This document shows positions 8,385 to 55,834 of a stretch of DNA of 64,000 bases, piece after piece. Positions within the stretch are counted from its first letter, which is position 1, and every line of letters begins with the position of its first letter. The notes below the pieces were generated by a model. It saw only the letters and a list, made by a program, of their open reading frames with translations. It was not told where the DNA came from and made no database searches. The stretch lies in the NCBI GenBank assembly GCA_023078555.1, contig CM041203.1, forward strand, positions 4,424,538 through 4,488,537, written 5' to 3'. A program made the position numbers and the translations under genes. Source of the stretch: Ulva prolifera. Its lineage: Eukaryota > Chlorophyta > Ulvophyceae > Ulvales > Ulvaceae.

Positions 8385-11300
8385 CGATTGCAGCTGCCGG
8401 CCGCGATGGCCCGGCACAAGGCACCTACACCATGCCGGCATCGGTGAGCTCTATCCTCAGAACGGTCGATGTGTCTTTGTGCCTGGGCCGAGACTGAACG
8501 GACGCGTTCTCCGGTGTCTCCAACAGGCTGGCCGGGTAACATGTACAGCGACACCTCTCTGAATGTCTACTCACGTTCAGACCGCATGCAGGCAGAATAC
8601 TTTGATACCATGTGTGCGGCAGTGCGCTTTCTGATCGAGAGTCTGCGCCCTTTGCGTGGATCCGACCGCTATGTGGCAGTTGTCCGCACTTACATCACAC
8701 TGAACGCACTGATCAAGCAGTACCAACAAGCTTTGACCAAGGTGAGCCAAAACTCCCTGCACCATTCTCTTCTTCTGCCGGCATCTGGACACACTTACGA
8801 TTCTCCTTGCAAGCCGCAACCCTGCGAACTGGCATTCTTGTCCATCACTGCGTCGTTACAGCAACAATATTGAGCTGCTGCATCCAATGCAGCTTGGCAA
8901 CTTGCCCTGCAGGCCCACAGCATCAAATCATCCGGGCAACACACCACCATGCATCCAGAGCCTCATGCCCGCTATCCATTCCATACGACCTCGACTGCTT
9001 CTGTTCCTTTTCAATGCTCGTGACTCGAGTGTCATCACATCCCTGTCCACGCTCGACAGCCACCATCGACCCCTGCTCACATCTGGCACCAGCAGGCTCC
9101 CACATCAGCACTGCTCGCGTGCAGAGGATCCTCCACAGCGTTCCGGAGGCTGTGCTGAAGCAAGACATGAACACCGCGTTTCGCAAAGTCGACGCGCTGC
9201 GCGCAGAACTCACAACCACGGCCGCCGACATCTGGTCCCCCAGTAGCCACACTTGTGCCTGGGCCGCCGAGCAGGTCCTCTCGGTGTCCCTACTCGCCGC
9301 GACCGCCACCATGGCCTCCCTCAGCATCGCCCGCGCCTTTGGCTGCCGCGCCGACGCACACCAGGCGCTCGTGTTTGTCTGCACGCAGTATGGGGTGCCC
9401 TCAAGCACGCAGCAGCAGCTGATGACGTGCTTCGTGGCGCCGGGCGGGCTTGGCGGCGGCCCCGAACACGGCTTCGTGGCCGCGGGCTTTGAGATGTTCA
9501 GCATCGCGTGCGCGTGTGCCGAGAGATACTGCTCCGCAGGCACTGCTCCTGGGGAGGGTACAGGTGCGGCGCATACCCTTGTGGTGAACTCACAAGGTTG
9601 TGCACATGTGTGCGCACCTGGTAGCTGTTGATGCAGGGGTCCCGTACGCCAGCAGCACCGAACGTATTCACATCGCCTCGCATTGCAATTGCAAGAACAA
9701 CAGAACACGGGTGGTATGATGTTCTACATGAAAGAGAAACGTGTGAATCGAGATGTTCTCTGGAGGAAGTGTGGGTCTACCACGCCATCCAGGTTTACTT
9801 CACATCGCCACGTACCGGGCTGTGGCCACACCGACTACAACATACCATACATACCAGTAGCGGCAGCTTCATGTGGCCGACGGAACGTAAGACCCGCCTT
9901 GCAGGTCAACAAGTGGAGCCCCCGGCCCCTCCCCTCGCACCGGAATCCAACCGCCTGTGCCTCACCGCAGGCAAGGGTGGACCTCAACGCCATGGCACGG
10001 GCACCGGGCAGCCCCCCTCCCGCGCCACCCAGGCCACTCCCACGCTTGCCCCATCTGCATGGCTCTCGTTCCCATCTCCACCGTCGGCACCGCCGCAGAG
10101 CCGTGCCGCGCCAGCGGACGCTCCTCCGCAGCCCGCCGCCGCGCCCGCGCCGCCGTGTGCCGCGGCACCGGGTGCCACCGGCCCTCGTCCTGGGGAGCTG
10201 CATTGGCAGAGGACTGCGGAGGCGGATGTGTGCGTGGAGGCACCGCATGCGGCTCCCCGGCAGCAGCTGCCGGGCGGGCAGGGCCCGGCCGGAGCGGCTC
10301 CTGCGCCGTCTGCACCGCCGCGGCCCCCGCAAGGCGAGGTGGCACCTGGTGAAGTCAATGATGTGGCCGCAACGCAGCAGCAGCCAGGTACTCCCCCGGA
10401 CTGCTCGGCTGCTGACTGCTGTTTTGTTGCCGAGTGAGGTCTGAATGCGGTCCCGACCCGTTTCGGGTTCAGTCTGTTCTTGGTGGTGTTCCATCCACTT
10501 GCTTGTTTGAACTATCCCACGGCGTGGTGTGAGGTAGTCCCCTGTGGTGTCCATGAAATGCCCGCAGCAGCTGTCAGCTGGATCCGCCAGGGTGCTGCTG
10601 GCGCGTGTGTCTCCTGTCGCCCATGGTGACTTCGCCGCGAGTGCTTGCGTGCGCCGCCATGGTGCGCCCACTGCATCAGACGCACCTGCGATGCCGCACC
10701 CTGCATTGGCACACAAGGAATGCCTCACGACAGGCGCTCCGCGGCCGTGCAGGTGCATCAGTGCCCCCTCCGCCACCACCAGCACCGCTGACCGCCGAGG
10801 CGGCCGCCGTGCCCGCGGCGTGCCAGAGCCCGTTCACACGCGCCAGCAACGGCGCCGGCGCGGCTGCGGAGCGTGCTGCGCGCAACGGTTCCGCGACGTC
10901 CTCCGACGCAACAATGCATGCGTCGAATGCATCGACGGTCGCCAACGCGGAGGTGCACCGCGCATGCGGCCGAGACGAGTGCGGCGTGAAGGAGGAGTCG
11001 CTGGTGGAGTGCGGTGCGGCGGCGGGCGGGCACGCGGGCGCCCGGCCGCCGTCTCGAGAGCAGAACACCGATGTCTCAGTCGTGAAGGCTGCCGGCTCCA
11101 GCGCGATGGGAGCAGGGCCCGCTGAGGATGTCAAAGGTATGGTCATGTTCGCTTCTCTCCCGACAGGCGGTGTTTGTGCGGTGATGCAGAGTTGCTGGTG
11201 CAACCTGGGTGTGGACGTGGGCAAAACCTGCGACTGCTCGCTGCACGGGCCGTCTCCAGCCGGCAGCCCTGTTGTCTGCGCCGGCACCACTCCATCTACA

Positions 11301-12158
11301 TCCCGAATGCAGCATTGGCGCCAACATCCATCTTGCACAGTGTTCAGCGCCGCGGGGCCGCTCTCAGGTCGACCCTCAGGTCGTGACGCATGTTCCACCC
11401 ACAGCATGCCGGCACGACCGCAAAGCCTTTCCCTTGATGCAGGCTCGCCTCACGACCGCACTCCGCCTCCTCGGCGCCCGGGGATCTTCCCACAAAGCCC
11501 CCCACGGAGCCCCCCTGTGCTCAGTGAGGCCTTCCGGGCCTCTTCTGGTCTCTCCTCCGCAACCCACAACGCCGCACCGCCGCGCATGATTTCGCCGCCG
11601 GTGCTTCCCACCGGGGCCCGCCGGGCCGTTGTGCCCGTGGCCGCCGCGGCTCCACCGCTTCGCGGCACTCCGGGTACCCCACCGCGCATGCAAGGCCACG
11701 ATGAAAGCCCCGCACACGGCAGTGATGGCAGCTTGTATGAGGGCCCCTCTGAGCCCATTCTGAGGGGGATCAAGGTGGTGCCTGCGGACGAGGTCAACGC
11801 TGCGGGCTCCGGCGGTGGATCGGCGGTGGATGCCCCGGAAAGCCCTGCGGTCATGCCGCTGAAGCGCGGCCGTGACGTCGGCTCCGCGTCTGACGATGAG
11901 TCTGATTACGAAGCCTCGGGTGGGCCGAGCTTGAAGTCGATGAAGCTGGAGGTCACCACCGCGCTGGATGTGAAGGGGCCGCCCGGCGATGGTGCGTCGG
12001 CGCAGGAGCCGTTTGTCGTGACGACGCCGTCGCAGGAGCTGTCGGCCTGCCACGCGCTGCGCAGCATGCGCAGCACGGAGGCGCTCAGCGCGGCGGTGCC
12101 GAGTCTTGATCACGGCCTCGAGGGGGCACAGTCGATGATGGACGTCACGGCCGAGTAG
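8385..12158 (+). CDS. Gene A: divergent member of the tandem family; helical core plus long Pro/Ala-rich tail (5' end incomplete)
   Basis: I do not recognise this protein. Proposed exons are 8385-8443, 8592-8741, 9125-9557, 9905-10348, 10753-11136 and 11443-12158, about 727 residues, and every junction keeps phase. The 8592-8741 exon is exactly 150 bases with phase 0 at both ends, as in genes B, D, E and F (AEYFDTM...QQALTK). The next exon runs phase 0 to phase 1 as in the paralogues, carries IWSP where they have EWSP, and has VAAGFEMF where they have ALAWTLYL. The last three exons are disordered, rich in Pro, Ala and Ser, and include LKRGRD followed by an acidic stretch (ASDDESDYE) and LKSMKL, resembling a bipartite nuclear signal. 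The first coding exon is not found. The exons at 9905 and 10753 are supported by phase only, and a stop at 10437 could instead end the protein. Its divergence and flank position suggest it predates the amplified copies. Confidence 0.6.
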
Positions 12159-12635
12159 GAGCGTGGGACCTCCCCAAGCTACAGGGCGTGCTACCCCTGG
12201 GCGCCGGTGACCCTCAGGTTTAATCCAAAGTGTGGTGGTTTGAGTCGGGTGTGAGCGGGGGTGGCAGGTTGGTCACTGTGGCACAGGGGGCGCGCTGTAG
12301 TGCATGCCGCGCCACAACAGTGTGTGTTGCAGTTTGGCTGTGGCCATGTGTGGAGGGTTGGCGGTGGCAGTGTGTGCTGTGGCTGCGGGGATGTGGCGCC
12401 GCCTGTGCTGCAGCGCTGTGGCGTGCACCATTCGCAGTGCATGCATGCAGCTGTATGCATGGCAGCACCTGGTCTGGAAAATAAAGCATGGTTGTGTACA
12501 TGCCCAGATAATCTGCAAACTTCAAGTACAGCGTCGTTTGCAGCGTCATTTCAAACCCGTTTGCTGCATTTATATTATTTGCAGCAGGATGGAAAGAAGA
12601 GGAGAAGTAGTGGGTGTATGGCCATATATGTGGTC

Positions 12636-12640
12636 ATGTA
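12636..12640 (+). promoter_or_regulatory. Putative poly(A) signal (TGTAA) of gene A
   Basis: TGTAA lies 478 bases after the gene A stop, farther than for the other family members. An AATAAA-like AAATAAAG at about 12479 is an alternative. Confidence 0.25.
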
Positions 12641-12883
12641 AATATGCGCTCGTGTGCAGAGCATGGGAGTGTATCTCGAGATACGTATGGTGACTGTGAC
12701 GCAATGATTTCCGTGCTCAGTGTTGCAGCCAATTTGCCGGCTCTCCACAGTCTGCCGTAGACAGGACACGAACTGCACGGCGGCTCTTGCACAGCCTATG
12801 GTTGACACTACCTAGTTTCCTGATAAATGTCATTGCAGAAGTTGCACCTGAAGGGAGATTGCAACTAGTGCAACGGGCTACGC

Positions 12884-12934
12884 AATTGCGATTCCATAGA
12901 GCTCACCACCTAGTAACTCTATGGAATCGCAATT
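12884..12934. repeat. Perfect 18-bp inverted repeat (hairpin)
   Basis: Arms 12884-12901 and 12917-12934 are exact reverse complements around the CCATAGAG core, with a 15-base loop. At the matching place in X copy 2 (about 21080-21115) only the right arm and loop are recognisable. Confidence 0.7.
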
Positions 12935-14859
12935 TAGCATGTCAGTGTACGATCAAACCCACGTGCCACGAATTCCGAGAAAAGTAACGTAACTGAAAGA
13001 TGTCGGAAACGAAGCATCGGTTCAAGCGGCACACATCTGAAGCCAGCTCCTGCAATGATGCGCATGTTGCCTGGTGCACATGTGCTGTAGAAACATGGCA
13101 TCCTAGTTTGCCCAGCTACATAGCGGTCACCAAGATTTAAGCCCGTAGAGATACTACTGTAGAGCGTTGTGGGTCGAGATGGCGACTCATCAATGTACCT
13201 GACTGCTGGCTGCCCTGTCCTCTTTCGCAGCAATCTGATCACAGGAGGTACATGGCATCAGATCGGAGACTGAACATATAGAACATGTAGATTATGTGAC
13301 CTTTGTCCAAATTGAAGGAACCAGTTCACAACACGTAGGTTCTGGTGCTCGCGCATGCACACCAGATTCCGCAACACCGAAAGCTTCATACTGGCGCAAT
13401 GAAGGTGGCGTGCATGCACACTTATCCCAGAAGAATGTACAATGGAAGCCATCACGAGCAGCGTAGTGATCTATACTGTATTGTATAGCGTTTCATCGAT
13501 CGACTTGGGAACTGCTGCGCGTATGGTCCAGGACCACGGCTCCCAAGCACGCCCTGTTGGCGCCCCTCAGGAAATAAAACTTAGCCACGAGAACTGAGCT
13601 CAACCAGGAGATGTGATTTTATGCGATCATGGGGGCAGCCGGCTAGCGTGAGTTATGTGGCCGAGAACTGACGGGCGCAACGCAATCGTGCGAGCGTGTA
13701 CGACACATTCCAGTTGAGGACAGATGGACGGCCCTTCACGATTCAAGACTGGATGCGGTAACATATCCTGGCACACTCGCAGTGCACCAAATTTCCCGGC
13801 GTTGAATTTGCAGCCATGTGCATGAAACGAGCGCTCGAGATTCGACACGAATCGAAGACGGACCTCAAAGTAGAGATGTACCGGTCTCAATTGTTGTCGC
13901 TCAGTGAGAAAGGTTTCAGCATGCTGTCTCTTCCCTTTCACTGAAACGTCGAAACGCTGTTTCATGCGAAATGTGAATTTGAACCATCTGCAGTGCACTC
14001 AGTATGTAGTTACAAAGGACAGAGGCCGGACATCGAGCCGTTGCTAGGCAGCACTCAGTATGTACGTGTAGACCCAGGAATTCCTCTCCATCATGCCTGC
14101 TTTAGAGCCTTAAACTCAATTGCAAGCCATCAGTAAGTTGCCCGTGATTCATCTGGTCTTGTACATGCTTCCCAACTGAGACCAAATTCTAGGCCGTGTG
14201 AAGTGTGATTCGTGTGATTCCTTGGGTTCGAGAGGTGCAACGCCGCAGCCTACAGGTGCTGAGGTCTAAGCTATCAGCACGCAGATGGAGTTGAATATTC
14301 ATCCAATCGCTGATCTTGACCAGAAAGGCTTATACAACGGCTTGCACATGCGCAAGGCCGCCTGGGCTCCAAATCCAATTCCATCTGCGCACACTGGCAC
14401 TTCAACTATGCTCCTGATCTGAAAACGGCATCCTGAGGCGAGAAATGGTCAAAATGGGATTTCCTATGTGCTGGAAGCATCGGTGAGCGCAGTGCGTGCC
14501 TGCTTCTACGAGGAGGAGGAGGACTGTGCGAGGCACCTGTGAAGTCTGCAGCAGCATCGCGACGGGCCATGGTACAATGCAACTGCCACCTGTGCTGCCT
14601 TGAAACGAAGCTCACTGAACCGCTGCAGCGGAAAGGTAGCAGGCCCTCTGTATAAGCAGATTGTAGCATGCACAACTAACAGCTGTCAGTGAGTCACGCT
14701 GCACGTCATCCACGGACGATACAGCTGGAATAGTTTGCAGCCTGTGGACACAGCATCACAGTCACAGCTGTCACAATCCTGGAATTGACCCAGAAGTGGA
14801 CCTACAAACTTCTCTCATGGCAGTGTGAGGCTGGGGTTGTATCTGAATCAGTATCTGAA

Positions 14860-15949: not shown

Positions 15950-16302
15950 CGCCGTCACTGGTCACCTCATCTCTACACCTCGAGAGATACCGCAAGTCGC
16001 TCATTGAACAGCCGCATTGAAACAACGTCGAGTGGCCAGAGGGGTTGCCGTTGTCACAGAACGATGCTATCTTACAACAACAACAAAAATCAATGCCATG
16101 ACTGCGGCGACGTTGGTCAGCGGTTGATAGTTTTGCTCGGGTATGCATCAAGCCGACACTTGACCATGTGCAAGCCGATACTTGACCATGTGCATTCCTA
16201 TACAGCCAACGTCGTCGTTTGTGCTTGCCTCTGCGCGCTGCCCATAATGGCTTCTGAGTTCCTCAAGCTTTTCCAGGTTAATATCAACCGCTATGGCTCC
16301 AA
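15950..16302 (+). promoter_or_regulatory. Promoter/leader module Q of gene B
   Basis: The module contains GTGGCCAGAGGGG (about 16030), a TGACTGCGGCGACGTTG block, a TCGGGTATGCATCAAG block, and GCTTCTGAGTTCCTC followed by TTTTCCAG. It ends at the start codon at 16293. The same blocks in the same order precede genes D, E, F and G. The start context has purine at -3 and G at +4 in every copy. Confidence 0.6.
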
Positions 16303-19300
16303 GTATGATTCGAGGATCCGCAAAATGCCGTGTTTCCGATGTAGTTCATTTCGGATCAGATCAGCACACGGATGCTCGATCATTGGATCCATGCACCGAG
16401 TATTCGCTGTCATTCCATACGCCGATGTGACATTCGCCCATTGTCCAAGGCTTCGGATTTTGCCATGTTTTCAGAGTTCTTGACGAGAGTCGAGCATAGG
16501 GCGTTTACAAGGGCGTATACGTGCCACTGCGCGTGCCACTGCGCGAGTAGTGCCAGCTATTCTACAGCCTACTCCATGCAGCGTTCCGGGCGATGAACGG
16601 CAATCTAAGCTAACACTACCGTTCAGCATCGACTTTGGCTGATGTTTGGGATGCAGACTCCTCTGTGCGACAGATGTTTCGACCGATTGACCACAGCTGC
16701 AGCTGGCACTTCTATCTCAGGAGATGTCTATTCCCCTTTACGCTTCTTTGACAATCTCAGGAGATAGGAATGCCTGCTCTGCATCACCACGGGATCGCGG
16801 GTGGAGAGCATCTGCGCGCCTGTCTGCATCACGCCAGTTGCCTGGGCGACACGATTCAGTGAAGGGCGACGTGCGGCATACGTGCGTAGAAGCATGCACA
16901 CGAAGACTGTGGCCCATGTGAAGCAGTGCTCGTCCTGCCTGCGTTACCTTGCGCTTCAAATTCTGTGCGAAGTGATGTTTCGGACGACACCTAACGCTGT
17001 GACCTGATCTGCAATTTCGCACAGTGCAAAACTGCCGTAGACCACCGGTACCGAAGCCGTATTCTCTCCCTCGCGCTTGGCTTTGATCGGAGTGCTGCAG
17101 CCTGATGGCTGCCAGTGCTGGCTATCAATTGCAGGGGGCGGGTTGGTGAACCTGAACCTGAGCTGATCGACGCTTCTGTGGTGCTACCAGCCCTGTCGCA
17201 TTCACTCTTGTGTTGTGAAACACAACCGAAGTTCCGGGGTTTCTATCTGTAAGTATGATGTATCATGCAAGGTGATCTCCACTATCTCCACCATATGGCC
17301 AGCCCTAGCTGTGCAGCCAGCAACGTGGCTGCATGCAGGTATCCTCGACGGCCGCAGTGCCCTCGGGCAACCGGCAGCAGCGTCACCACCGATCAGACAG
17401 CAGCTGCGCACCGAAGATGCGGCGGCAATGTCCGCAGGCGTTGTTGTGGCGTCGGCGCCTAGCTCCACCGGAAGGAACAGCGCGGCTTACATGCACGAGG
17501 TTCCTCCACCGTCGCTGGTGCGCCTGCGCTGCCGTTGTGAAACATGAAATGTTCATCTTGGAGCTGACCCAGACTGCCAGTGAATGCACCCACGCATGAC
17601 ATGTCTCTGGTCAGAGGCCCGAGCCCTCACCTTGGCTAGATCAACTACCTAGCAATGTGTTTACTGTCCATGTCTGTGATGTGGTCACCATTTGCTGAGC
17701 CTGCAGTGCGGGGATACACAGTCAAGCATGTACGGCATTCAGAAATGTACGAACTGAGCATTGTTGTGCGATGTGTAGCACCCGAAACTCTTTGGAGCCC
17801 TGCAGACCATTCAGAAATATGTCAAAGGCTGCTTAAATGTCAGCCATGAGTTCGCCCACACCGGCGTGCTCGCATGTCTCAGCAATCTGCGCCTCTTCTT
17901 CCTGGAGTATGGCATCGTGTATCGTCAGGTCCGACTCTGCAGTTTTCAACCGGCAACGCTGGCTTGTTCACCTCCGACTACCAGCCATGAATGGCCCTGA
18001 GGAGCATAGTTATCATCATGCGATGCGATGGTGTCTCAACATCGTGCCATAACCCTGCACGTATACATGCATACACTGTGTGAGATCAGCTGCAAGACAT
18101 GCTCAGCGGCACTGTTGTCTAGAGCATCCTATGCACGACCATGCCATCATGACGTGTGGTGGTATGCGGGCTGTGGTATGAGCGCACCCATCCGCCTTTG
18201 AGGGTGTCGCTGCATCACCACTGGCACCGTGGTGACGGCCAACACCAGGACCCACATGCAGTGGCTGCAGTCACAGGCTCCGACAGAATCTGCCATCTCC
18301 TGTGTCTTGAAGTCGATGACAATGCAACTCTGCAACGTCACTGAATGCATCGCGAGCACATGCTACTGTCATGCACTGCAATGGTCCCCTAAGCGGCGCC
18401 ATTTCCTCGCTGCTTTCCTTGCCGCGGCGCAGGCTGCCATCGTGACGCGTGACCACACGCGCCCATACACCCGCGACAAGATGCTGAAACTTCTGGACGA
18501 TCAACTGACCCGGCACTCAAGCAAGCTCAAAGTTGGGGGCCTGTATGCTGTGGAACGCGACAGCGCAGCGGATGATCTGATGCGGGGGGCGAGGGCAGCT
18601 CTCGCTGGAGCAGAGACAGGGCTGGGGAACGAGGGGGCGTTGATGAAAGCGCTTGCATAGACGCTGTTGATAGGCATGTGCCAGCAGGCCGCCGCTGAAG
18701 ACGGGCTGCAGTACTTCCAGACGGCACTTCGATCCAGTAGTGCGCGTCCCCGGCAGATCGCTGCGCCACTGCTCTTGGTGCCGCAAACGCCTGCTGCGCC
18801 CTGTAGCTGCGCGGCCGCGCTCTTGCCTTGTCATTTTAGACTGCTGCGTGCATATCAATCGTCGGTGACTTATCAAACGCGTATATATATAGCGCGCGTG
18901 TAGGCCGCTTGTTGTAGGCACCAGTATACTATAGGGCCAGGAACCCGCTGCAATAGCCCAACAGACCATTCACGGCTCAACATTGTTTCACATACTCATG
19001 GCTACTCCCGCATGTGCAGGCCATGCACCCATGTTATTTCCCACATGCATCAAGCCGCCCGCCCTGGCCACACCAGCACTGGCCCCGCCCGCCGCGCATC
19101 CCGCGGCGCTGGCGGTGCATGCACGTGCGCAAGCCACAGCGGTTTCTCCACAGCAGCCCATCGCCTCTGTTTCCCTTTGCGGTGCGCTACTCAGCGCAAG
19201 CCAAGGACCCCTCGGCCAGGCTTTCAGCGATACCGCTGACGCAACACCCCAGAAGACAGCTCGCACGCATGTGGACGGCATTCGTTCAACGCAACGTACG

Positions 19301-19378
19301 GCTGAAAACCGTCTGGGCCAAGCAAGGAACTTGCTGTCACCAGAGATCATCAACCACTTTCATCATGCTGACGTGTGA
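16293..19378 (+). pseudogene. Gene B: family member with helical core, interrupted by a nonsense codon
   Basis: Exons are 16293-16302, 17339-17517, 17779-17928, 18262-18739 and 19020-19378, with matching phases throughout. Exon 1 is ATGGCTCCAA, completing Ser4 across the intron. The 150-base exon encodes HPKLFGAL...EYGIVYRQ. The next exon has QWSPKRRHFLAAFLAAA. In that exon the Trp of the conserved LAWTL motif, kept in D and E, is replaced by TAG at 18658-18660, which would remove the last 27 codons of the exon and the whole tail. Everything after the stop is still in frame, so inactivation looks recent. The last exon holds a single, diverged copy of the Pro/Ala/Gln cassette that is expanded in gene D, then QKTARTHVDG and a final HHADV. 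Without the stop the protein would have 391 residues. A sequencing error or a truncated functional product cannot be excluded. Confidence 0.7.
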
Positions 19379-20595: not shown

Positions 20596-22960
20596 AACAG
20601 GGTTGGCGGCGGCAGCGTGGGCTGCGGCTGTGGTGATGTGGCGCCGGTAGTGCTGCAGCGGTGTCCACAGTGCATGCATACGGCTATATGCATGGCAGCA
20701 CCTGGTCTTGTACATGCCCAAGTAAGCTGCGAACTTCAAGCACAGCGTCGTTTGCATCGTCACTCCAAACCCAGATGCGGCATTCAACACATTTGAAGCG
20801 GCAGGATGGACAAAAGGAGGCGAAGTAGTCGGTACATGGCCATGTAACACGCTCTTGTGAAGAGTATGGGTTGTGTATGGTCTTCATGACGCGATGATTC
20901 CCCTGCTTAGTGTGACAGCCAAGGTGCCAGGCTTGCAGCCGACCTCGGATCACTAGTATGATGAGCAGGACACGAACTGCATGGCGGATAGCCTATGATG
21001 GACACTGCGCCTTTTCCTGCCATGATGTCCGTGCAGCAGTTTGACCTCAAGGCAGAGTGCACCGGGCCACGTCACTGCGAGCCTGGGTCCCCACCACCTA
21101 GTAATTCTGTGAAGTCGCAATCCAGTATGTCATTGTACGGTCAAACACGCGTGCCACGCATTTCGAGGGGAGCACCATACTTATAAGATAATACAAATCA
21201 GCATCAATTAATTGAATTCAGCTGGCATACATACATCTGAAGCCAGCTCGCGCAAGGATGCACATTGCCTGGTGCACATGTGCTACAGAAACATGGCATC
21301 GTAGTTTGAGCAGCTAAATAGCAGTCACTGAAACGGAATTTTGTAGAGCTGTCAATGTGGAGCGTTGTGGGTCGAGATGGCGACTCACCAATGTATCTGA
21401 CTGCTGGCTGTCCTCTTGCACAGCAATCTGATCACAGGGAGATACATGGCACCAGGTCAGAGACCGAGAAGCTAGAGGACGTTGCCTTCGTCCAAATTGA
21501 AGGAACCACTTCACGACAGGTAAGTGCTGGTGCCCGCCTATGCACAGCAGGTTCTACAACACCAAAAGCTTCGTACTTGAGCAATGAAGCTGGCGCATAT
21601 GCAGTCTCGTCCTCGAAGACAGTGTAACACAAGCTGTCACAAGTAGCACGATGACCGAAACTGTATCGTACAGCGTTTTAGCGTTTGACATGGGTAGTTC
21701 AGCTCGTATGGCCCAGCACCACGGCTCGCAAAAACGTTGTCTTAGCTTCCCGCAGGAACGATAACTGGCCGAGAAGATCGAATTCAAGCAGGAGGGGTCA
21801 TTCAATGCGGGCATGGGGGCAGCCTGCCAGCTAGATTTATGTGGCTGAGAACTGACGAGTGTGTGCAAGCCCAACGGAGTAGTGCGCGCGCGTACGAAAC
21901 AAACCAGCGGAGGACAACTTGACGGCCTGCCACGATTCACAATTCGATTTCGTAGCCTATCTTGGCACATTCGCAGTGTACCCAATTTCCAGGTGCTGCA
22001 TCTTCACCAATGAAAGCTCTCGATAGTTGAAACGATTTGATAGTGGGCCTCAAAGTGGAGATGCAGCGGTCACAACTGTCGACAGCCAAGGGACGTACAC
22101 CCGCATGTTGACTCTTAGATTTCACTACAAGGTCGAAATACCTTTTCATGCGCGATGTGAGTGTGACCTAGTGCATGCAGATGAACATGTAGACCCCAGG
22201 CATTCCTCTGCATCATGGCTGCCTCATCACCTTGAGTTCAATGTCGAGCCATAAGTGAGTTGCCCATAGCTCATCTGGTCGTGTACATGCTTCCTAACTG
22301 ATACCACATTGTTGATTGTGTGATTCCTGGGGCAGTGTCCGAGTGGTGCAATGCCGCAGCATACAGGTGCTGGGGGCTAAACCGGTAGCATGCAGCTGGA
22401 GCTGAACATTTACCGCATCTATCGTCTTGGCCAAATTTTCCGATTTTGCTTCGGCCTGGACATGGGTACAGCCTCCCATTAGTCCACCTTCACACACTGG
22501 CACTCACTGGCACTTCGACCACGCTCCTGATCTGAAAATAGCAGCATGAGGCGATGAACATGAAACTTGACATCTCCTGTGTGTTGGAAGCATTGGTGAG
22601 CGCAGTGCAAATGCCTGCTTGTACGAGGAGGACTGTACAAGGCACCGTCCAGCAGCAGCGTCGGGCTATGGTACACTGCAACTGCCACCAGTGCTGCCTC
22701 CAAACAAAGCTCACCAAATCGCTGCAGCGCAAAGGTATCGGAACCGGCCGTCCGTATGAGCAGATTGTAGCCTGCGCTACTGACAGCTGTCAGTGAGGCA
22801 CTTTTCACGTCATCCATGGACGATGCAGCTGGACATTTGTACACGTGAAGCCTGTGCACACTGCAACACAGTCACAGCTGTCACAATCCTTGAATTGACC
22901 CAGAAGTGGATCAAAAGACTTCGCTCATGGCAGTGTCAGGCTGGGCTCGCTCGCACACGA
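20596..22960. repeat. Downstream module X, copy 2
   Basis: It is homologous to 12350-14830 in the same orientation. The plus-strand frame near 22640-22730 (CNCHQCC...LQRKG) lies where the D-type modules keep paired CxxC motifs, but frame and spacing differ, so I read it as decayed. Confidence 0.6.
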
Positions 22961-24689
<1,729 letters not shown>

Positions 24690-24780
24690 AAGCTTGTCTA
24701 CCACATCCACCTTTTCGTCGCGCAAGAGCTTCTGAAATCCTCCAGCTTTTCCAGATCCACATCTAGCACAATGGCTCCAG
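24690..24780 (+). promoter_or_regulatory. Partial promoter/leader module Q of gene C
   Basis: Only the last 70-90 bases match the other Q modules: CGCAAGAGCTTCTGA, then CCTCCAGCTTTTCCAGAT, ending at the ATG at 24771. The start-exon sequence is ATGGCTCCAG followed by GTACGT, the best donor in the family. Confidence 0.5.
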
Positions 24781-27063
24781 GTACGTATCTCTACTGCTCC
24801 GTGTTCAACCACAAGTTGTCGACATCGATTGATGCTGTGTTGAGCGTCGACCCGCCCCCAGTACTAGTGCGTCATGATCAGCGACGGATCGACACAGCCA
24901 CGTACGTTATAACGCCCGTCCTAACGTCGATGTATTGTCCATCTGCAGATCTAATCGATACCCAACACTTACATACTCACTTGCAACAAGGCAGTTCTTC
25001 ACAACACATTTGTTTGACGGAGGTGTGGTGCTGCGGGTTTGCGAGCTGCCGCGATGCTCGAGATCTGCGCCGCATACGTAAGAATAGTACTCGAACGCAT
25101 GTCTAGCATGTCGTGAAAATATTTGGCTGGAAAGAGCGTACCTTGGGTCGTTGCTGTGTCGTTCTGGCTGCGCTCGTGGACGCGTGCGCCTGTGTTGTCC
25201 GGCTTGCAGTGCTCGACGTCCGTGCGCTTCGGATATGCACCATGGTGCGGATATATATGATGCGACGCACGTCACCAGCTATAAAGTTTGCAAGATCACG
25301 CGGTGACCTGGGTGCATTGTTCACCTTCACATGTGAACCTGCGCGATGGCAGCTGCCCGCCTGCTTCATACTGCAAGCACCCTGCGGCGCAATATTGCAT
25401 CATTGAGATACTGCAGCTGGCGGTACTGCTGCAAGTAGGCTGTCTTCGATACATATGATCTGGCACGTACATGTCGATTTGCATGCCCAGCAACGTCCGA
25501 CTCGGATCCCAGACATCGTGTGCTGCATCAGGGCCCGGGGGAGTTATATTAGGCTTGCAAGCCTAATTGTTTATTTATTTATCGAACTTCTCATTGATCG
25601 TTTTGCATTTTCCAGAAGTGAATTTTCTTTAGCCAAAGACTAGTTGGCGAGATTTTGTATTTGCCATAGCATCACCTTTGCTTGCGTGATTGATCTCATC
25701 TCGAGATGTAGTCTGGAGGCCAGCATGTCTGGCATTGAGTTCGGTGCTTCACAAGCCGTCGACGTGGACCGATTCCTACATATGTAATATTGGCGCTTAT
25801 GCACGAGTCGATGTGCCTGTGGCGAGGGGCAGTCTACGTCAGCTCACCAAAGCTAAGCCAAAATCCACCAATGCCTTCTCCCGTTCACTCTTTTGTAAAT
25901 CCACAATCACACTCCTTCCACCATGCATGCATTAGCTTCACTGACGCCAACTCAGCGTCCACCTAGCTCGGCATGCATGCCACCTCAGCAGCTCCAGCCG
26001 CATGCATTGTATGATGCATGTACCACGTGTGTACATGTACACCTCAGCATAAGGGGTTACCAGTGACAACATTGTTTGCAAATTACACCATCGATAGCTG
26101 ACCTGTCTTTCTGCTGGTGCAGGTGCTCGGACTCCATGCAACGCCCCCGGGCCAGACTCTCCCGTCGCGCCCGCAGCCATGCAGCACGGCATGCGCGACG
26201 ATGACCCGCCACCCCTGCAACGCGCCACACCGCTGCTGCCGAGGGAGGAAGTTGCCGCCATCCTTGCGGCCATGCGGTGCCCCCGTTGCAGCGGGCCTAC
26301 TGCCACCGATGTGCCAATGACGCCTTCCCCTCAGGTTGAAGTCTCCGGCTTCACACCTGGAATGAAGCTGAGGCTGGCACCAGCATCTCTGGCACCATTG
26401 CCAAGCCATGGCCCCTGCGGCGTTACTGCGCAGCCAGCTGCGGCCGCACACCCCACCACTGATGCACCCATGCCCCCTGCGCCAGAGCGTAGCGCCACAC
26501 CGCCTGCCTTCACTGAGATGCAGGCAGTTGCAACCCCACACGCCGCCGAAGGAGACGCTGGCACGGTCGCGCCAGCGCAGCGCGGCAAGCGGGGCCGCAC
26601 CGACCCTGAAGAAGAGGACGCCGCTGGCTCGGCTGCGCACAAGAGGCAGGCATCATGGGCAGAGGGCGCGGCCCTGGCCCCTGCGGAACAGCGGCAGTTC
26701 TGGCCTGCTTGTGGAGGCGGACACCAGAGTGTCCCGGAGGAGTGCCCTGCACCTGTGGCCACCGCGGCGCTCAGCCGGGAGATGGCGTTGGGCGCTGCTG
26801 ACCATGTTGACCCGGGGGCGGTTGCTCCCCAGTCGCAGGCCTGTAATGCGCCGGCGCTCAAATCGGCGGCTCCCGCTGCGGCAGCGGCGCCGCCGGTGGA
26901 CCCTGCGGCGGCGGCCGAGGCACTGGACCCTGCCTCCCAAGCGATGGACTACATGAACCAGCCGGAAGAGGATATTTTATCGGCCAACTCGTTGCTGGGC
27001 TTGCTTCAGCCCACATACACGCCGCTGTCAGATGATATGCTTGTCAGGCCTTTGTCGATGTAA
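24771..27063 (+). CDS. Gene C: family member lacking both helical exons
   Basis: Exons are 24771-24780 and 26123-27063, giving 316 residues. The first is the family start exon (Met-Ala-Pro; Gly4 is split by the intron). The second opens with ARTPCNAPGPDSP, which aligns with AHIRCNTPAKQ of gene E, and then runs straight into a Pro/Ala-rich tail. The 50-residue and roughly 160-residue helical exons are absent. The 1342-base intron has room for them, but no matching sequence is seen there. The tail holds a Cys pair (MRCPRCSG), the basic cluster GKRGRTDPEEED...AHKR that parallels EKRRRGE...TRQR in E, and a hydrophobic end (NSLLGLLQ). Function is unknown. A TGTAA lies 266 bases after the stop. It is either a natural short variant or a product of unequal recombination that kept its frame. 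Confidence 0.62.
25877..25898 (-). repeat. 22-bp element shared by first introns of C, E and G (inverted here)
   Basis: The reverse complement of this stretch is identical over 22 bases to 39492-39513 and 54627-54648 (core TTACAAAAGAGTGAACGGG). All three lie in the long first intron of a family gene. Confidence 0.7.
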
Positions 27064-35000: not shown

Positions 35001-36765
35001 TCTTCCACAGAAGCCCATCGCCACTGTTCCCCCTGCCGTTTACCCGCCCGCCACACAGACAGCGTCGCTGCCGGAGCATGCACGCGCGCAAGCCGCGGCG
35101 ACTCTTCCACAGCAACCTGTCCCCCGCTTTGCTTCTGCCTTTGCCTCGCCCGCCACACAGACAGCGGCGCTGCCGGAGCATGCACGAGCGCAAGCCGCGG
35201 CGACTCTTCCACAGCAGCCAACCGCCACTGCTCCCCCTGCCGTTTACCCGCCCGCCACACAGACAGCGTCGCTGCCGGAGCATGCACGCGCGCAAGCCGC
35301 GGCGACTCTTCCACAGCAGCCCACCGCCACTGCTCCCCCTGCCGTTTACCCGCCCGCCACACAGACAGCGTCGCTGCCGGAGCATGCACGCGCGCAAGCC
35401 GCGGCGACTCTTCCACAGCAGCCCACCGCCACTGCTCCCCCTGCCGTTTACCCGCCCGCCACACAGACAGCGTCGCTGCCGGAGCATGCACGCGCGCAAG
35501 CCGCGGCGACTATTCCACAGCAGCCCACCGCCACTGCTCCCCCTGCCGATTACCCGCCCGCCACACAGACAGCGTCGCTGCCGGAGCATGCACGCGCGCA
35601 AGCCGCGGCGACTATTCCACAGCAGCCCACCGCCACTGCTCCCCCTGCCGTTTACCCGCCCGCCATACAGACAGCGTCGCTGCCGGAGCATGCACGCGCG
35701 CAAGTCGCGGCAACTCCTCCTCAGCAACCTGTCCCCCGCTTTGCTTCTGCCTTGGCCCCGCCCGCCACACAGACAGCGGCGCTGCCGGAGAATGCACGCG
35801 CGCAAGCCGCGGCGACTCTTCCACAGCAGCCCACCGCCACTGCTCCCCCTGCCGTTTACCCGCCCGCCATACAGACAGCGTCGCTGCCGGAGCATGCACG
35901 CGCGCAAGTCGCGGCAACTCCTCCTCAGCAACCTGTCCCCCGCTTTGCTTCTGCCTTGGCCCCGCCCGCCACACAGACAGCGGCGCTGCCGGAGCATGCA
36001 CGCACGCAAGTCGCGGCAACTCCTCCTCAGCAACCTGTCCCCCGCTTTGCTTCTGCCTTGGCCCCGCCCGCCACACAGACAGCGGCGCTGCCGGAGAAGG
36101 CACGCGCGCAAGCCGCGGCGACTCTGCCACAGCAGCCCACCGCCACTGCTCCCCCGGCCGTTGACCCGCCCGCAACACAGACAGCGGCGCTGCCGGAGCA
36201 TTCACGCGCGCAAGCCGCGGCGACTCTCCCACAGCAGCCCACCGCCACTGTTTCCCCTGCCGTTGCCCCGCCCGCCACACAGACAGCGGCGCTGCCGGAG
36301 CATGCACGTGTGCAAGCCGCGGCGATTCCTCCACAGCAGCCCACTGCCTCCTTTGCCTCTACCAGTGCCGGTGCACTGCATGGCACAAGCCAAGGCCCTG
36401 TTCACCAGATTTGCAGTGGCACCAACGACACACCACCCCACAAGACAGCGCGCACGCATGCGGACGGCAGCTGTTCCCGGCAACGAAGGGATCAAAGACC
36501 TCTGGCTCAAGAGAGGGACTCGCTGTCACCAGAGACCATTGACCGCCTGCTTTATATGCCTTGCCACATGCATGCCGCCGGCCCGCCCGCGGCGCCCCTT
36601 GGCCGGGCTTCTAGCGGTACCATAGACGCACCTCCCAAAAAATCAGCCCGCACGCATGCGGACGGCAGCCGATCCCGGCAACGCAGGGCTGCAAAACCTC
36701 TGGTCCAAGAAAGGGACTCGCTGTCACCTGAGACCATTGACCGCCTGCTTTTGGCCGATGTGTGA
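32031..36765 (+). CDS. Gene D: family member with helical core and 14 tandem 34-residue repeats
   Basis: Exons are 32031-32040, 33214-33395, 33643-33792, 34131-34614 and 34892-36765; the phases fit and give 899 residues without a stop. Residues 1-64 are Pro/Ala/Gln-rich, 65-114 are the fixed 50-residue helical exon (HPKLNEDL...MEYGILCRQ), and about 115-275 are the second helical exon with QWTPKRRHFLATF and LAWTLFVGLC. The last exon carries 14 consecutive 34-residue cassettes (34942-36369; typical start PPATQTASLPEHARAQAAAT), followed by a 66-residue tail module present twice (HKTARTHADG and KKSARTHADG), each with RQRR and LSPETIDRLL. The repeats lack the features of TAL effector, PPR or TPR repeats and look disordered. 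The duplicated basic tail could direct the protein to the nucleus. No TGTAA is obvious close downstream, and the D-type downstream module is missing, so the 3' end of this unit was probably lost in a recombination. Confidence 0.75.
34942..36369 (+). repeat. 14 x 102-bp in-frame tandem repeat in gene D
   Basis: Fourteen units of exactly 102 bp (34 codons) follow head to tail. Two subtypes alternate irregularly: one ends QQPTATAPPAVY and the other QQPVPRFASALA. Neighbouring units are close to identical (units 3-7), and the block unit 8-9 resembles unit 10, which points to recent expansion by unequal exchange. Gene B has a single diverged unit at the matching place. Confidence 0.9.
36415..36765 (+). 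repeat. Duplicated 66-codon tail module in gene D
   Basis: SGTNDTPPHKTARTHADG at 36415 and SGTIDAPPKKSARTHADG at 36613 start two copies with a period of 198 bp. Both run through SRQRR and RDSLSPETIDRLL. Gene B has one copy, ending LSPEIINHFHHADV. Confidence 0.8.
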
Positions 36766-38149: not shown

Positions 38150-38453
38150 CTGGCACATCTTGCGATGACATGTCATGTAGCGCAAGTCTCCCATCGAATG
38201 ACGCGTGTGGACGACATTCATAGTGGCCAGAGGGGTCTGCGTCATCTGCGATCGTCACGATCTTTACAATGATCCGATGACTGCAGCGGCGTTGCTTTGG
38301 GGTTTTAATCTGGTCCGGATAGGCATCAATACTCAACAGTGTCAGTACATCCTTCTACAGCCAATCTCTTTGTGTAAGCCTGCTTGTGTTGCGCACGATA
38401 GCCTCTGACTTCCTCGAGCAAATCCAGACCTGAAGCACCAGCAATGGCTCCAA
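38150..38453 (+). promoter_or_regulatory. Promoter/leader module Q of gene E
   Basis: It includes ACGCGTGTGGACGACATTCA then GTGGCCAGAGGGG (38222), GATGACTGCAGCGGCGTTG, GTCCGGATAGGCATCAATA, and the start codon at 38444. The first block is nearly identical in gene F (46360-46397), the strongest promoter identity in the array. Confidence 0.65.
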
Positions 38454-41400
38454 GTACGCCTCTAGGCTCCATAAGCTGTCGTGCTGTCGATGTAGTGCAC
38501 CTCGGATCGAATCAGCATACGGATGCTCGACCGTCGGAACCTTCTACGATCCTACTCAACGCCGATGTGACGTCCATCCACTGTACAAGGCTTGACAGTC
38601 AGCTATCTCTTCAGCTTTGTAATTGTGTGTTTATCAATGGGCGTGCGTGGCACGTACGCGCAACTCTGTGAATGTCGCGAGCCCTACGTACGTATACCCC
38701 AAGCTGCAGATCTAGGGTCCCGGATGATCAAGCGCAGGGGTGTCAGGCTGCCTTCGTCAGCGTTGCGTATGGTGTGCTGTCTTACATATATAAGCTTTCG
38801 ATCCACGTATGTACGTGCAATCGAAGTACATGCCTGGCCGACTGATCATTGCCGCAGAATCTCCATGGCCAAGCTCGCGTTGCGTACGCGACCAGCCTCT
38901 GCGCGCATATCTGCTCCAAGCCGCTGCCTGGAAGCCATGGTGTAGTGAACGGGCGACTTTGTGGTGAAAATGTAGCAGCATGCACAACAGCATCGTTTTC
39001 CATGCCTGGCATTGCTCGACATGTGTGCGTCACCTTGCAGCTGCGCATTAGATTGAGTGCGAATGCGACTTCTCGGACATTTGCGGACGCACAGTTTGCG
39101 ATGTCACGCAGTGAACGACTGATGTGAGCCACCGAAGCCTTGTCGCTCGCGCCGTGAACTTGAATTACGTTGCCATGGATGCGCCACCGTGACGTGGCAC
39201 ATGCACGCAGTTGCCATATCCACTATCCGCCATGCGCGCCAGTACGTCTGCCAAGAACACGCGCCGGCAGGCGCCTCCGCGACCGGACCTGCTGCATCCG
39301 ACAGACATGCAGTGTTCAGCTTTCTCGACTGTTTCTGGTGATACACATATGTAACGGCCCATATACATATCGTGAATATGCAACATTGAATTCAAATTGC
39401 TTCACAGTGCACGTCTTTTCAGGCCTACTAGTATAGCTAGGCCTGCAAATCCTAGGCCTGCAAATCTGAGGAAGCATGTATATGCCATGAGTTACAAAAG
39501 AGTGAACGGGAGAAGACAAACACCAAAACCGAATCTCATCCGAAGCAACAGCAACACATACACACACTACTAGTGTGTGTCACTACGGTAGTACACACTA
39601 CACTGTTGGCAACCACACCTCAGTCCGGCAGGATCGCGTCCTCCAGGAACACAGCGGCGCTGTCGCTGTTTTCCGAGTCCAGGGAGTCTGCATTATATAT
39701 GGCCATATATGGCTGAAGCATGCAGTGATGTCACTGTACACTCACTCATCATTGATTGCAGCATCAAGCTTAAGCCTCTAGGCGCGGTGCCATCTCACAA
39801 CAGCAATGCGCATGCATGCCAACTAGTTGATCAAGCTTGATCAATCTTCGAAGTCTGCAGTGTCCCGCACATCATGATCATGATCACTGGATCAAGCTGA
39901 ACTCCATCAGCGCTGACCCTGCAGTCTGCAACCTGTGTGCGTGCTTGTGCAGGTGCCCACATCCGTTGCAACACCCCGGCCAAGCAGGTCAGGCCGCAGC
40001 ACCGCCACGTGAATGCGGCGGCAGTCTCCGGTGGAGGTCCAGTGGCGAGTCCGCCCACCCCCGCCAATCTTGCAGAACATTCGATGGCTCCAGATCTGCT
40101 GTCGCTGGTGCGCTACCATTCTGAATGACACTTCTTGGCCCAGGAGTCCTGGGGTGCAAATATATATATATATTCGCTGCTGGTAGATGTTGCATCAAGA
40201 GCATGAGAGCACCGCTCGCCGCTCGATGCGCCAACTATCAATCTGGACAGCGCGTCTCCAATGTGAACACCGCTGTTGGCCTAGCAGTGTGGATCCAAAG
40301 AGCAGATGCAATCACGAACCTCATCCAACATCGTAGCATCACAGGCATGTACAAACGGACCTTTGGCGCAATCACTGACGTGTGACTGTTGGCGTGGCGT
40401 GCAGCATCCCGAGCTGCTGGAACACCTGAAGACCATTCAGGACCAAGCCGAGGGCTGCATGTGCATCACGGCCGGGGCGGCCTACATCGGCATGCTCTCG
40501 TGTCTGAGCACCCTGCGCTACTCCATCCTGGCGTACGATGAAATTCTCGTCCAGGTCCGACTCGTCAGCCCCGCTGGAGTGTGCATCAGCTTCCATGTGC
40601 ACTCGCCATCGGCCTCGCCTGCAATGCTTGACAATTGGCGTAGAACATGGTCCCCTACACGCACACATGCATACACCAAGTGCAATCAGCGTCAGGAGGT
40701 GCCTGCCGAGTTACATGGCATGGCCACGAGCACAAAGCGCAAAGACGGCCACAGGCGGCCGCGGACCCTGAAGCACGCCATAGCCGCGCATACCCGTGCG
40801 TGTTGGCTCATGTGCTGTGAACTCCGCAGGCCCTTTGACCTTGATCTGCCAGCATCACAATCGCTGACACAGCGCCTCGCATGCATGCAGTGGAAGCAGA
40901 CCCAGACACCGACCGATGCTGAGCTCTGCGGCGTCCTGGCCAGGGCAATGGCGCCCCTCCTCCACACCACCGAGCTCATCACCACCACATGCAACCTGCA
41001 CGCCCCGGAGTGGAGCCCCAGGCAGCGCCACTTTCTCGCGACGTTCCTTACCGCTGCGGTGGCCGCCATCGTAACACGTCACTACACGAGCCCATGCACC
41101 CGCGACCTGCTCCTGCGGATTCTGGACGAGCAAGCTGTGTGGCAGTCACACCAGCTCAGCGCTGAGGGCCTGGGCGCGGCGGAGCGCGACGGCGGGGCGG
41201 ACGAGCTGCTGCAGCGGGTGAGGGCGGAGCTTGCCGGGCCTCTGCCGCGGCCTGGGACTGAGGCGCAGTGGGTTGCAGCGCTCGCGTGGACGCTGTACCT
41301 GGACCTGTGCAACCAGGCCGCCGCCGACGACAGGCTGAAGTATCTTCAGGCAGCGCTTCGGTCCACTGGTGCGAATCCTCGGGACGCCCATGCATGGTGC

Positions 41401-42226
41401 ACTCTCATCATCCACCCTGCAGCAGGTCATGGCTACCGTGTACTTCTCACAGCGACAACACACACGCACCCCTTGACCACTTCGTTGTGTATATGCAGGC
41501 CTGCCCGCCGCGTCCTCTCACGGCGACATCAGGACCGTCCAGAATCAGACCATGGTGGCCTCGAACCACGCAGCGCCCCAGGCGCCCCTGCCTCAGCCGC
41601 ATGCAGCTGCTGCCATGCCAGCTTCAGCACTGATGCCGCAACAGCAAGCCCACGTTCGCACAGGCATGCTGCCCCAGAGCTGCGACAGGACGCAACCTGT
41701 CGCCGTGCACGCGGCCGCGATGTCTATGGTTGCACCGGACCCGGCGGCTCCCATCGGTGATGCAGTTACACCGGCGCCGATCCCGCGTGGCGTGAACGTG
41801 TTGACGTTGCAAGACACGCCAAGCCTGGCGGCCACGCCAGCTGGGGCGGGGCTGCCAGCTCGGGGCGAGAAGCGCCGCCGCGGCGAGTGCGGCGGCGGAG
41901 AGGAGTGCGCACCTGCCACGCGACAGAGGCTGACACAGCTGCCGGCGGCCTGCCTTGTGGCCCCGGAGGCTGTCTCGGATGAGGTCCCCCCGCTGGAGTG
42001 GCTCATCACTGCTCCCTCCATCCCTCCATCGGCCGTTCTGCCAGTGGCCCGGCCGCCAGCAGCCCCCCAGCAGCAGTCCCTCACTATGTTGGACCCCTTG
42101 ATGCAAGGCCCCCTTGAAGCGGCACCGTGGGTGGAGGGCCCGCTTGTTTTGAGCTTCAGCGTCCCGCTGTCGTTGCCGTCGTATCATACTTTTGACCTCG
42201 ATGAGCTACTCGGCCTGGTGGCGTGA
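38444..42226 (+). CDS. Gene E: intact reference copy of the tandem family
   Basis: Exons are 38444-38453, 39953-40107, 40405-40554, 40891-41368 and 41499-42226, giving 506 residues with every phase consistent. The order is Met-Ala-Pro-Ser; a Pro/Ala-rich exon with NAAAVSGGG; the 50-residue helical exon (HPELLEHLKTIQDQAEG...DEILVQ); a 159-codon helical exon with TITTT-like, EWSPRQRHFLATFLTAA, TRDLLLRILDEQ and ALAWTLYLDLCNQAA; and a tail with EKRRRGECGGGEE...TRQRL (bipartite nuclear-signal-like), PPLEWL, DPLMQGPLE and the end TFDLDELLGLVA. I know no family with this layout. The basic cluster and the acidic-hydrophobic end resemble a nuclear regulator with a short activation-type motif, which is inference only. 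TGTAA lies 134 bases after the stop. The first intron is about 1.5 kb and shares blocks with those of F and G. Confidence 0.8.
39492..39513 (+). repeat. 22-bp element shared by first introns of C, E and G
   Basis: The core TTACAAAAGAGTGAACGGG is followed by AGAAGACAAACAC. It is identical over 22 bases to 54627-54648 and to the inverted copy at 25877-25898. Confidence 0.7.
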
Positions 42227-53025: not shown

Positions 53026-53069
53026 AAAAGCTGAAGCCAGCACGACAAAGTCTCATCACAGTACGGACC

Positions 53070-53400: not shown

Positions 53401-53559
53401 GCCAAAGGACGTGATTCAGCGGATTCAGATTTGGCGTTATTCACTTGCACACAAAGCATCGTAGGTGGGATCTGATATATCCACCTGTTGATGAGGAGGG
53501 GAAGGATCTCTGTAAAGTTCACCACGTGGCAAGGCCTTGCAAGACTAGCGCATGCCTGA

Positions 53560-53880: not shown

Positions 53881-55834
53881 GTACGCCTCCTGGATCCGCA
53901 AGCTGTCGTGTTGCCGATGTAATGCATTCCGCATAAGATCAGCGTTCCGATGCTCGACCGTCACATCCTTCCACAGTCATGTCTTACACCGATGCATTTG
54001 ATACATTGAACGCTTGACGCGCAGCCATCTCTTCTGTGAATGTGAGCGGATCATAGGTGTGACACGCGCAAGCTACTAGTATGTATACTCTGCAGCGTTT
54101 CGCAAGCTCTGTATCGCAAGCTCTGCTTCAACTTGAAGCTGCAGCGTCTCCGGCGGACATCACTGAGTGTAGTCTACCTTGGCACATGATACCGGCGGTG
54201 GTGAAATTGTGCACATCGACATGTAAGCGTCACTCTAGATCTGCGCATAAGATTCGGTGCAAACGTTGACGTGACATGAAAGTGTGAATTCACGCAATGC
54301 ATAATTCAATATCCTCTTGGTCCACAGCTTCGTGCGTTCTCGAGTCCAGGAAATTGCTTTCCTGTGAAATTTGCCCTGAACGCCTGCGCCACGTGGCGCA
54401 CCGCAACATGTACCATATCCAGCTGCCCGAGTACAGCCTGAGCGCACACAAGCTATGCTCCGCAGCGCTTGGGCATGCTGCGTCGCTCAGCTGTATAGGT
54501 AAGCTAGCATCAAGTTTCTCAGCTCTGCATATGCTGGGCATGTACAACGAAGCATTTCACAGTGAGTAGCAATTAATTGCGTGTCAACGCAAACTCAAGA
54601 GTGCGTACTATAGTGAGAGACTCTTATTACAAAAGAGTGAACGGGAGAAAACAAACACTGCGTACTATAGTCTTTGTGTGCTGCATATACACCGGTATAC
54701 GCGCCATGGTGTTGTGGATTTGGTCGAATGTATGATTAATCGATCAAGCGCTGTGACAGGGTACCGGTGCCAGCTGCAGCCTGCAACCTCTCCGCGTGCA
54801 TGTGAAGGTGTTCACGATTATCGCAATGCCCCCCCCGGGCCGACAGTGTCACCGTTGGCGTCGCCGATGTCGGACGCATCCGATGAGATCAGGCAGCATC
54901 GCAGCCACGGTGTGGATGAGGCGGCAGTGTCCGCCGGTGGCGCGGTGGCGCACCCGCCCAGCCTCAGCACCCTCGCGGACCACGCGATGACTCCACCACC
55001 CATATGGATTGTGCGCTGCCGCTCTGACCGAATCATCCTGGCACTCATCTTCACGGCTGACATATTCTGCATATGATATCAAGGATGCATCCATGCCGCC
55101 ATGGACACTCATGGCGGCTCTGAACCACATCTCCCAACTGTAACGTGTTGTGCTGCTGGGGCAGCAGAGCGTGGAGGCAGATGCATTCATATGCGTGACT
55201 GTGCAGCACTGATGCGCAGAGCCCGCAGCATGTTGAGACTGCAGACTGAGCATCGGTGCGCATTACTGACCCTTGCCACGTGTACGGCGTGCAGCACTCT
55301 GCCGGGAAGCGCAACCGCAGCAGGAGCGGCCATGACAAGCATCGCACTCCGGCCGCGCACAAGAGACTGGCACAGCTCGCGCCTGATCCACAGGCGGTCA
55401 CGGACGAGGTCCCCTCGCCAGATCTTCTCGGCACAGGTATCTGGTCGACCCCATCCCTGGAGATCACACTTTCGTCGCTCCCGCCATCGGCCGCGCTGCC
55501 TGACGCCCTCCAGAGGGCCCGGGAGGCCCCCCCGCCGATCGCGATGGCCCCGCAGCCGGAAGCCGCCCCGCCGGCGGCCCCTCACTGGGACGCGGCCCCG
55601 CCGGCGGCCCCTCACTGGGACGCGGCCCCGCCGGCGGCCCCTCACTGGGACGCGGCCCCGCCGGCGGCCCCTCACCGGGACGCGGCCCCGCCGGCAGCCC
55701 CTCACCCAGTCGCCGCCCACCAACTCTCCCTCTCTGCGATGGACCCCATGATTTATGCCCTCGCGGAGCTCATGGGGGAGGGCTTCGAGTCGATGAGCTT
55801 TAGCGACGTGCCAAAGTGGTTGTATGTGCCGTAG
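53871..55834 (+). CDS. Gene G: second family member lacking the helical exons
   Basis: Exons are 53871-53880, 54808-55010 and 55295-55834, giving 250 residues with consistent phases. It has Met-Ala-Pro-Ser, then the Pro/Ala-rich exon (DEAAVSAGGAVAHPPSLS, close to that of F), then directly a tail exon. The second intron is only 284 bases and holds no trace of the 50-residue or 160-residue helical exons. The acceptor of the second exon is GTGAAG where paralogues have GTGCAG. The tail has GKRNRSRSGHDKHR...AHKRLAQL, five 10-residue AAPPAAPHWD-type repeats (55559-55708), then LSLSAMDPMIYALAELMGEGF and the end FSDVPKWLYVP. The basic cluster and Met-Asp-Pro block align with gene E (LTMLDPLMQ). TGTAA lies 409 bases after the stop. 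It may act as a core-less counterpart of the longer members. Confidence 0.62.
54627..54648 (+). repeat. 22-bp element shared by first introns of C, E and G
   Basis: Identical over 22 bases to 39492-39513 (core TTACAAAAGAGTGAACGGG). The following AAACAAACACT also matches gene E with one base changed. Confidence 0.7.
55559..55708 (+). repeat. 5 x 30-bp in-frame repeat in gene G
   Basis: Five units of ten codons, DAAPPAAPHW with end variants HR and HP. Units 2-4 are nearly identical at the DNA level. Confidence 0.9.

What the first reader, a model, noticed from the sequence alone, without database searches (positions are those of the whole stretch)
8385..55834. Tandem array of a multi-exon gene family with no recognisable homologue
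Seven plus-strand genes share exon order, exon lengths and intron phases: start exon, Pro/Ala exon, 50-codon exon, 478/484-base exon, tail exon. I recognise none of the domains. Four copies keep the helical core, two lack it, and one is a divergent founder. Repeated units with their own promoter and downstream modules suggest an expanding, fast-evolving, lineage-specific locus.
Basis: partly seen in the sequence, partly recalled or inferred. Interest (0 to 1): 0.9.

Follow-up and report, generated by a model that had tools for sequence, protein, structure and literature searches.

The report
Clustered orphan gene family, green alga
A row of related genes in what is most likely a green alga encodes proteins with a helical domain that matched no known family in the libraries searched, with further relatives along the same chromosome; they may be gene-regulating proteins, but that is not shown.

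Summary
Four plus-strand genes (B, D, E, F) share five exons: a 10-nt start exon, a Pro/Ala exon, a 50-codon exon, a 478- or 484-nt exon and a tail exon, with GT-AG introns in phases 1, 0, 0, 1. C and G keep start exon and tail but lack the core. A, the "founder", fails the sequence tests and is unproven.

The array is not alone. At least six more core genes lie within about 0.6 Mb on the same contig, 22-30% identical to the window copies over exon 4, with matching exon boundaries. A near-identical, frame-broken block on contig C7 looks like an assembly duplicate.

Exon 4 is predicted as seven helices (pLDDT 82.9, pTM 0.79). No hit passed a curated cut-off or E 0.001 in Pfam, NCBIfam, PHROGs, PDB or BFVD, and pattern-led scans of IMG/VR and GTDB gave no relative. 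Other eukaryotic proteomes could not be searched, so "no homologue" is not settled.

My reading: fast-evolving, nuclear regulator-like proteins; function is inferred only. B has an in-frame stop; F ends earlier than E.

The parts
16293..19378 (+). Gene B: start exon 16293-16302, Pro/Ala exon 17339-17517, exon 3 17779-17928, exon 4 18262-18739 (in-frame TAG 18658-18660), tail exon 19020-19378
24771..27063 (+). Gene C, core-less: start exon 24771-24780, one long Pro/Ala-rich exon 26123-27063 with a KRGR...KR motif; 316 aa
   Evidence: no core hit; a genome search with part of its long exon found only itself
32031..36765 (+). Gene D: exons 32031-32040, 33214-33395, 33643-33792, 34131-34614, 34892-36765; 899 aa; the tail holds the 102-bp tandem repeat 34941-36348
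38444..42226 (+). Gene E: exons 38444-38453, 39953-40107, 40405-40554, 40891-41368, 41499-42226; 506 aa
46610..50062 (+). Gene F: exons 46610-46619, 47749-47921, 48126-48275, 48668-49151, 49293-50062; 528 aa
53871..55834 (+). Gene G, core-less: exons 53871-53880, 54808-55010, 55295-55834; 250 aa
   Evidence: no core hit
8592..12158 (+). Gene A, membership unproven: 50-codon stretch 8592-8741, 439-nt stretch 9125-9563, Pro/Ala-rich frame 10557-12158 with a KRGR motif
   Evidence: no second copy at E up to 1
12354..14835 (+). Downstream module, 70-75% like 20599-22945
   Evidence: the part 20599-22166 found two places in the genome search
20599..22945 (+). Second copy of the downstream module
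32063..32079 (+). Element shared just inside intron 1 (also 38476-38492, 46650-46666, 53903-53919)
   Evidence: 4 matches, 0.26 expected; also seen in L024-L028

Best explanation
A protein-coding gene family of a (most likely) green alga, expanded by local duplication in three clusters on one chromosome. Shown: shared gene structure, loose purifying constraint on the core, one group per cluster in the tree, an all-helical predicted exon 4, no transmembrane or signal-peptide-like stretch by hydropathy in D, E, F. Inferred: the proteins are nuclear regulators. The helical core (exons 3 and 4) would bind a partner protein or DNA, the basic cluster would carry the protein into the nucleus, and the low-complexity tail with its hydrophobic/acidic end would recruit the transcription machinery. 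The core-less paralogues C and G would compete for the tail's partners without the core's target.
For: Models open over five exons in D, E, F. dN below dS in 11 of 11 exon-4 pairs and 5 of 6 exon-3 pairs computed (pairs not independent, no test against 1). Tree: each cluster is one side of a branch, support 100/100, 97/96, 99/98. Seven-helix model of exon 4, pLDDT 82.9, pTM 0.79. KR-x-R in 7 of 12 tails looked at (E, F, G, C, L024, L025, L027), at one aligned place in the six aligned, in tails poor in lysine (E: 1 in 241). Largest 19-residue hydropathy 1.43-1.55 in D, E, F, N-terminal values near zero.
Against: No DNA-binding or co-regulator family passed a cut-off; no fold matched. Basic clusters and acidic tails are weak, common features; 5 of 12 tails (B, D, L026, L028, L029) lack KR-x-R, B and D having another basic stretch. 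Exon-4 dN/dS of 0.27-0.78 allows relaxed constraint; B has a nonsense codon, F a shorter tail. The sub-threshold EAD2 hit would point elsewhere. No expression or localisation data.
Confidence: 0.33

Rival explanations
1. Fast-evolving cytoplasmic proteins (for example defence, recognition or stress scaffolds) that evolve by birth and death; the basic motif is not a nuclear signal.
For: Clustered pattern, broken or shortened copies (B, F), repeat expansion in the D tail, dN/dS up to 0.78 in exon 4 and one exon-3 pair above 1. One of nine exon-4 members has a sub-threshold hit to EAD2, an effector-associated domain.
Against: KR-x-R kept at one aligned place in six tails that have otherwise diverged. 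The EAD2 hit is below its cut-off and in one member only. The padloc library was not searched.
Confidence: 0.3
2. A divergent member of a described plant or algal family that these libraries fail to show, such as a DOG1-like regulator.
For: Recalled likeness of the W-x-P-x-x-R-x-F-L stretch to DOG1; no algal proteome was searchable.
Against: PF14144 gave no match in this genome at E up to 10 (an exon-by-exon search that could miss a domain split by introns). No PDB or Pfam hit over a cut-off with nine members; best Foldseek E 2.9.
Confidence: 0.2
3. Mostly pseudogenes: a decaying array with little protein function.
For: Nonsense codon in B, earlier stop in F, cores absent in C and G.
Against: Open frames over five exons in D, E, F; matching splice sites over 22-30% identity; dN below dS in exon 4.
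Confidence: 0.11
4. A domesticated piece of a transposon or giant virus.
For: Repeated modules around the genes.
Against: No Pfam hit at E up to 0.05 in ten long frames between the genes (other frames not tested). One module found at two places only in the genome search. No viral contig or BFVD match. Regular multi-intron genes.
Confidence: 0.06

Closest known systems
Lineage-specific tandem gene families (birth-and-death clusters)
   Same: Neighbouring same-strand copies, cluster-wise groups in the tree, shortened copies, fast change.
   Different: The core matched no family over a cut-off in the libraries searched; lineage restriction is untested.
DOG1 domain (PF14144) regulators
   Same: Recalled only: a helical domain with a W-P-R-F-L stretch.
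   Different: Profile test gave no match in this genome.
EAD2 (PF19956)
   Same: One of nine exon-4 proteins (E) matched over 37 residues at E 0.0083.
   Different: 16.8 bits against a cut-off of 23.8; the other eight members do not match.

Membership tests
DOG1 (PF14144) | Match to the family profile | tested here: not met
   No match in this genome at E up to 10; not among the Pfam hits of nine exon-4 members
EAD2 (PF19956) | Score over the curated cut-off | tested here: not met
   16.8 bits against 23.8, 1 of 9 members
Transposon or viral protein | Homology to a mobile-element or viral protein | tested here: not met
   (four members, best E 0.11), 65, 69, 86: phage families, viral contigs, viral folds and Pfam only
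Tandem paralogue family | Neighbouring copies of common descent with shared gene structure | tested here: met
Tandem paralogue family | Gene A belongs to it | tested here: inconclusive
   Profiles negative; phases and a KRGR motif fit but splice sites were chosen to fit
Tandem paralogue family | Restriction to one lineage | not testable with these tools
   No other eukaryotic genome or proteome on hand
Nuclear transcription regulator | Nuclear location and effect on transcription | not testable with these tools
   Only sequence features

The most novel reading that the evidence does not exclude
The roughly 210-residue helical core is a new protein domain that arose in green algae and founded a class of nuclear regulators, with natural core-less antagonists encoded in the same array and a shared micro start exon followed by a conserved intron-1 control element.
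Probability: 0.12. Interest if true: 0.75.

Novelty: new member of a known kind. Interest (0 to 1): 0.45.

Why it matters
If the core is truly without relatives, this is a clean case of a new domain being born, duplicated and trimmed on one chromosome, with ten core copies of graded divergence in one genome. The core-less copies would allow a direct test of whether losing a domain makes natural competitors. If a match turns up in algal proteomes, it becomes an ordinary expanded family.

Tried and rejected
DOG1 likeness: tested with PF14144, no match. Giant-virus or prokaryote origin: pattern-led scans of IMG/VR (1 candidate) and GTDB contigs (68 candidates) confirmed none as a relative. Alternative genetic code to explain the TAG in B: six LHC-type copies end in TAA (2) or TAG (4) at the conserved C-terminus, so the standard code holds and the TAG is a nonsense codon. 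Link to a mating-type locus: the two RWP-RK matches lie on contigs C2 and C3, not C8, so no support. A as founder: profile tests negative. A second, longer model (exon 3, in-frame intron, exon 4 of E) was poor, pLDDT 56.8, so how exon 3 packs on exon 4 is unknown. C tail: it matched the tail of L027 at E 1.3e-5 in a search of nine loci, but a genome search with 183 residues of C found only C itself at E up to 0.1. Paper searches: listings only were seen, no paper was opened; no such family was seen in the listed titles and abstract starts. In one search the B and D tails were taken in a wrong frame, so those rows are not used; one search has the right frame.

Full report
What is there. The window lies at C8:4424538-4488537 of an 88.9 Mb assembly of 44 contigs. 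The genome encodes LHCII-type chlorophyll a/b proteins; one of them matches chlorophyll a-b binding chains in the PDB, the best whole-sequence score going to a 620-residue LHCI-2 chain, with Lhcb chains close behind. The entries' organisms are not shown there, so "green alga" is my inference. Self-comparison of the window shows repeated blocks between about 12 and 55 kb.

Gene structure. B, D, E and F share a 10-nt start exon (ATG GCT CCA A; GTT for GCT in F), a Pro/Ala exon of 155-182 nt, a 150-nt exon 3, a 478- or 484-nt exon 4 and a tail exon. All 16 introns are GT..AG; I picked the sites by comparing copies. D, E and F are open to the tail stop (899, 506, 528 aa); B meets a TAG in exon 4, at a place where D, E and F have tryptophan. 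F ends at 50062; read, E's frame has 17 further codons after the aligned place.

Core-less relatives. C has the start exon and one long exon; G has the start exon, the Pro/Ala exon and the tail, joined in frame. Exon 3 and 4 profiles run over the six frames of the window and nine out-of-window loci hit, within the window, only B, D, E and F above the inclusion threshold. G shares Pro/Ala-exon and upstream similarity with E and F. C shares the start exon and leader, 3' flank with E and F and the KR-x-R motif; a genome search with part of its long exon found only itself.

Gene A. It has a 50-codon stretch and a 439-nt stretch with fitting phases, and a KRGR motif in its long tail, but I chose the splice sites to fit. 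Profile comparison gave nothing: 72 of 100 (exon 3) and 38 of 100 (exon 4) shuffles score as well. The tail profile scores A at -31.0 bits, reversed A at -35.1. No second copy at E up to 1.

Relatives outside the window. Searches with exon 4 of E and of L026 found, besides the four window copies, four genes at C8 4.849-4.895 Mb on the minus strand, two at C8 5.035-5.041 Mb on the plus strand, and a block on C7; the tool calls such counts lower bounds. One search also listed C1 (E 0.6) and C4 (E 5.5), which I did not count; a profile scan of the C1 locus gave E 2.6. The six C8 relatives have an exon 3 of 156-165 nt, phase 0, and an exon 4 of 490-496 nt, phase 1; sites were picked by eye. A start exon like the window's was found in five of the six (L024-L028; ACG for ATG in L027); none was found for L029. 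The tree of ten genes puts each cluster on one side of a branch (100/100, 97/96, 99/98); the B-D fork has 87/86 and the B row is cut at its stop.

Constraint. Exon 4: dN below dS in 11 of 11 pairs computed (E-F 0.157/0.315; D-B 0.201/0.422; L028-L029 0.192/0.495). Exon 3: 5 of 6 window pairs, D-E being the exception. Pairs share history and no test against 1 was made: coding constraint, but loose.

Fold and libraries. The exon-4 model of E (four window rows) has seven helices, pLDDT 82.9, pTM 0.79; the five models ranged from 63.2 to 82.9. Foldseek listed 38 PDB and 46 viral matches at E up to 10, none at 0.001 or better, best E 2.9 and 2.1. Pfam over nine exon-4 members gave four families, each from one member: EAD2 (E 0.0083, below cut-off), Lar_N (0.011), TetR_C_15 (0.037), Delta_lysin (0.13). 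NCBIfam and PHROGs over the four window members gave five and seven families, each from one member, best E 0.013 and 0.11. PDB sequences: two hits with each profile, best E 0.33 and 0.36. IMG/VR and GTDB scans: no relative confirmed.

Tail and function. KR-x-R is present in 7 of 12 tails looked at: E, F, G, C, L024, L027 (aligned) and L025. L026, L028 and L029 lack it; B and D have another basic stretch. No 19-residue stretch of D, E or F reaches 1.6 in hydropathy. From this I infer, at about one in three, nuclear regulator-like proteins. Nothing here shows DNA binding, location or expression.

Intron-1 element. A 17-base pattern just inside intron 1 has 4 matches with up to 3 mismatches in the window (D, E, F, G; not B or C) against 0.26 expected, no shuffle reaching 4. 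By eye it is also in L024-L028. The pattern was derived from these genes, so the count is not independent of the choice.

Limits. No other eukaryotic proteome was searchable; E-values of the genome searches are for one genome; no transcript data.

Noticed in passing
C7:6384000-6403800 (L030, L031) against C8:5030000-5042070 (L028, L029): Block of about 12 kb, 99.7-99.9% identical, inverted. In the 7.6 kb compared, 19 of 21 differences are gaps of one or two bases, and exon 4 is frame-broken in both copies: probably a redundant, poorly polished assembly copy, or a very recent duplication.
   Followed up: partly
32063-32079, 38476-38492, 46650-46666, 53903-53919: 17-base element just after the micro start exon, shared with the out-of-window clusters.
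   Followed up: partly
L027 (reverse complement of C8:4889401-4899300), position 2444: ACG stands where the relatives have the start ATG; an in-frame ATG lies 27 bases upstream.
   Followed up: no
34941-36348: 102-bp tandem repeat, 13.8 copies, inside the open D tail exon.
   Followed up: no
55558-55705: 30-bp tandem repeat, 4.9 copies, inside the open G tail exon.
   Followed up: no
5031-6257 (-); 58375-58782 (-); 62136-62510 (+): Flanking frames match protein kinase, DIOX_N (dioxygenase N-terminal) and short-chain dehydrogenase profiles: an ordinary nuclear setting.
   Followed up: partly
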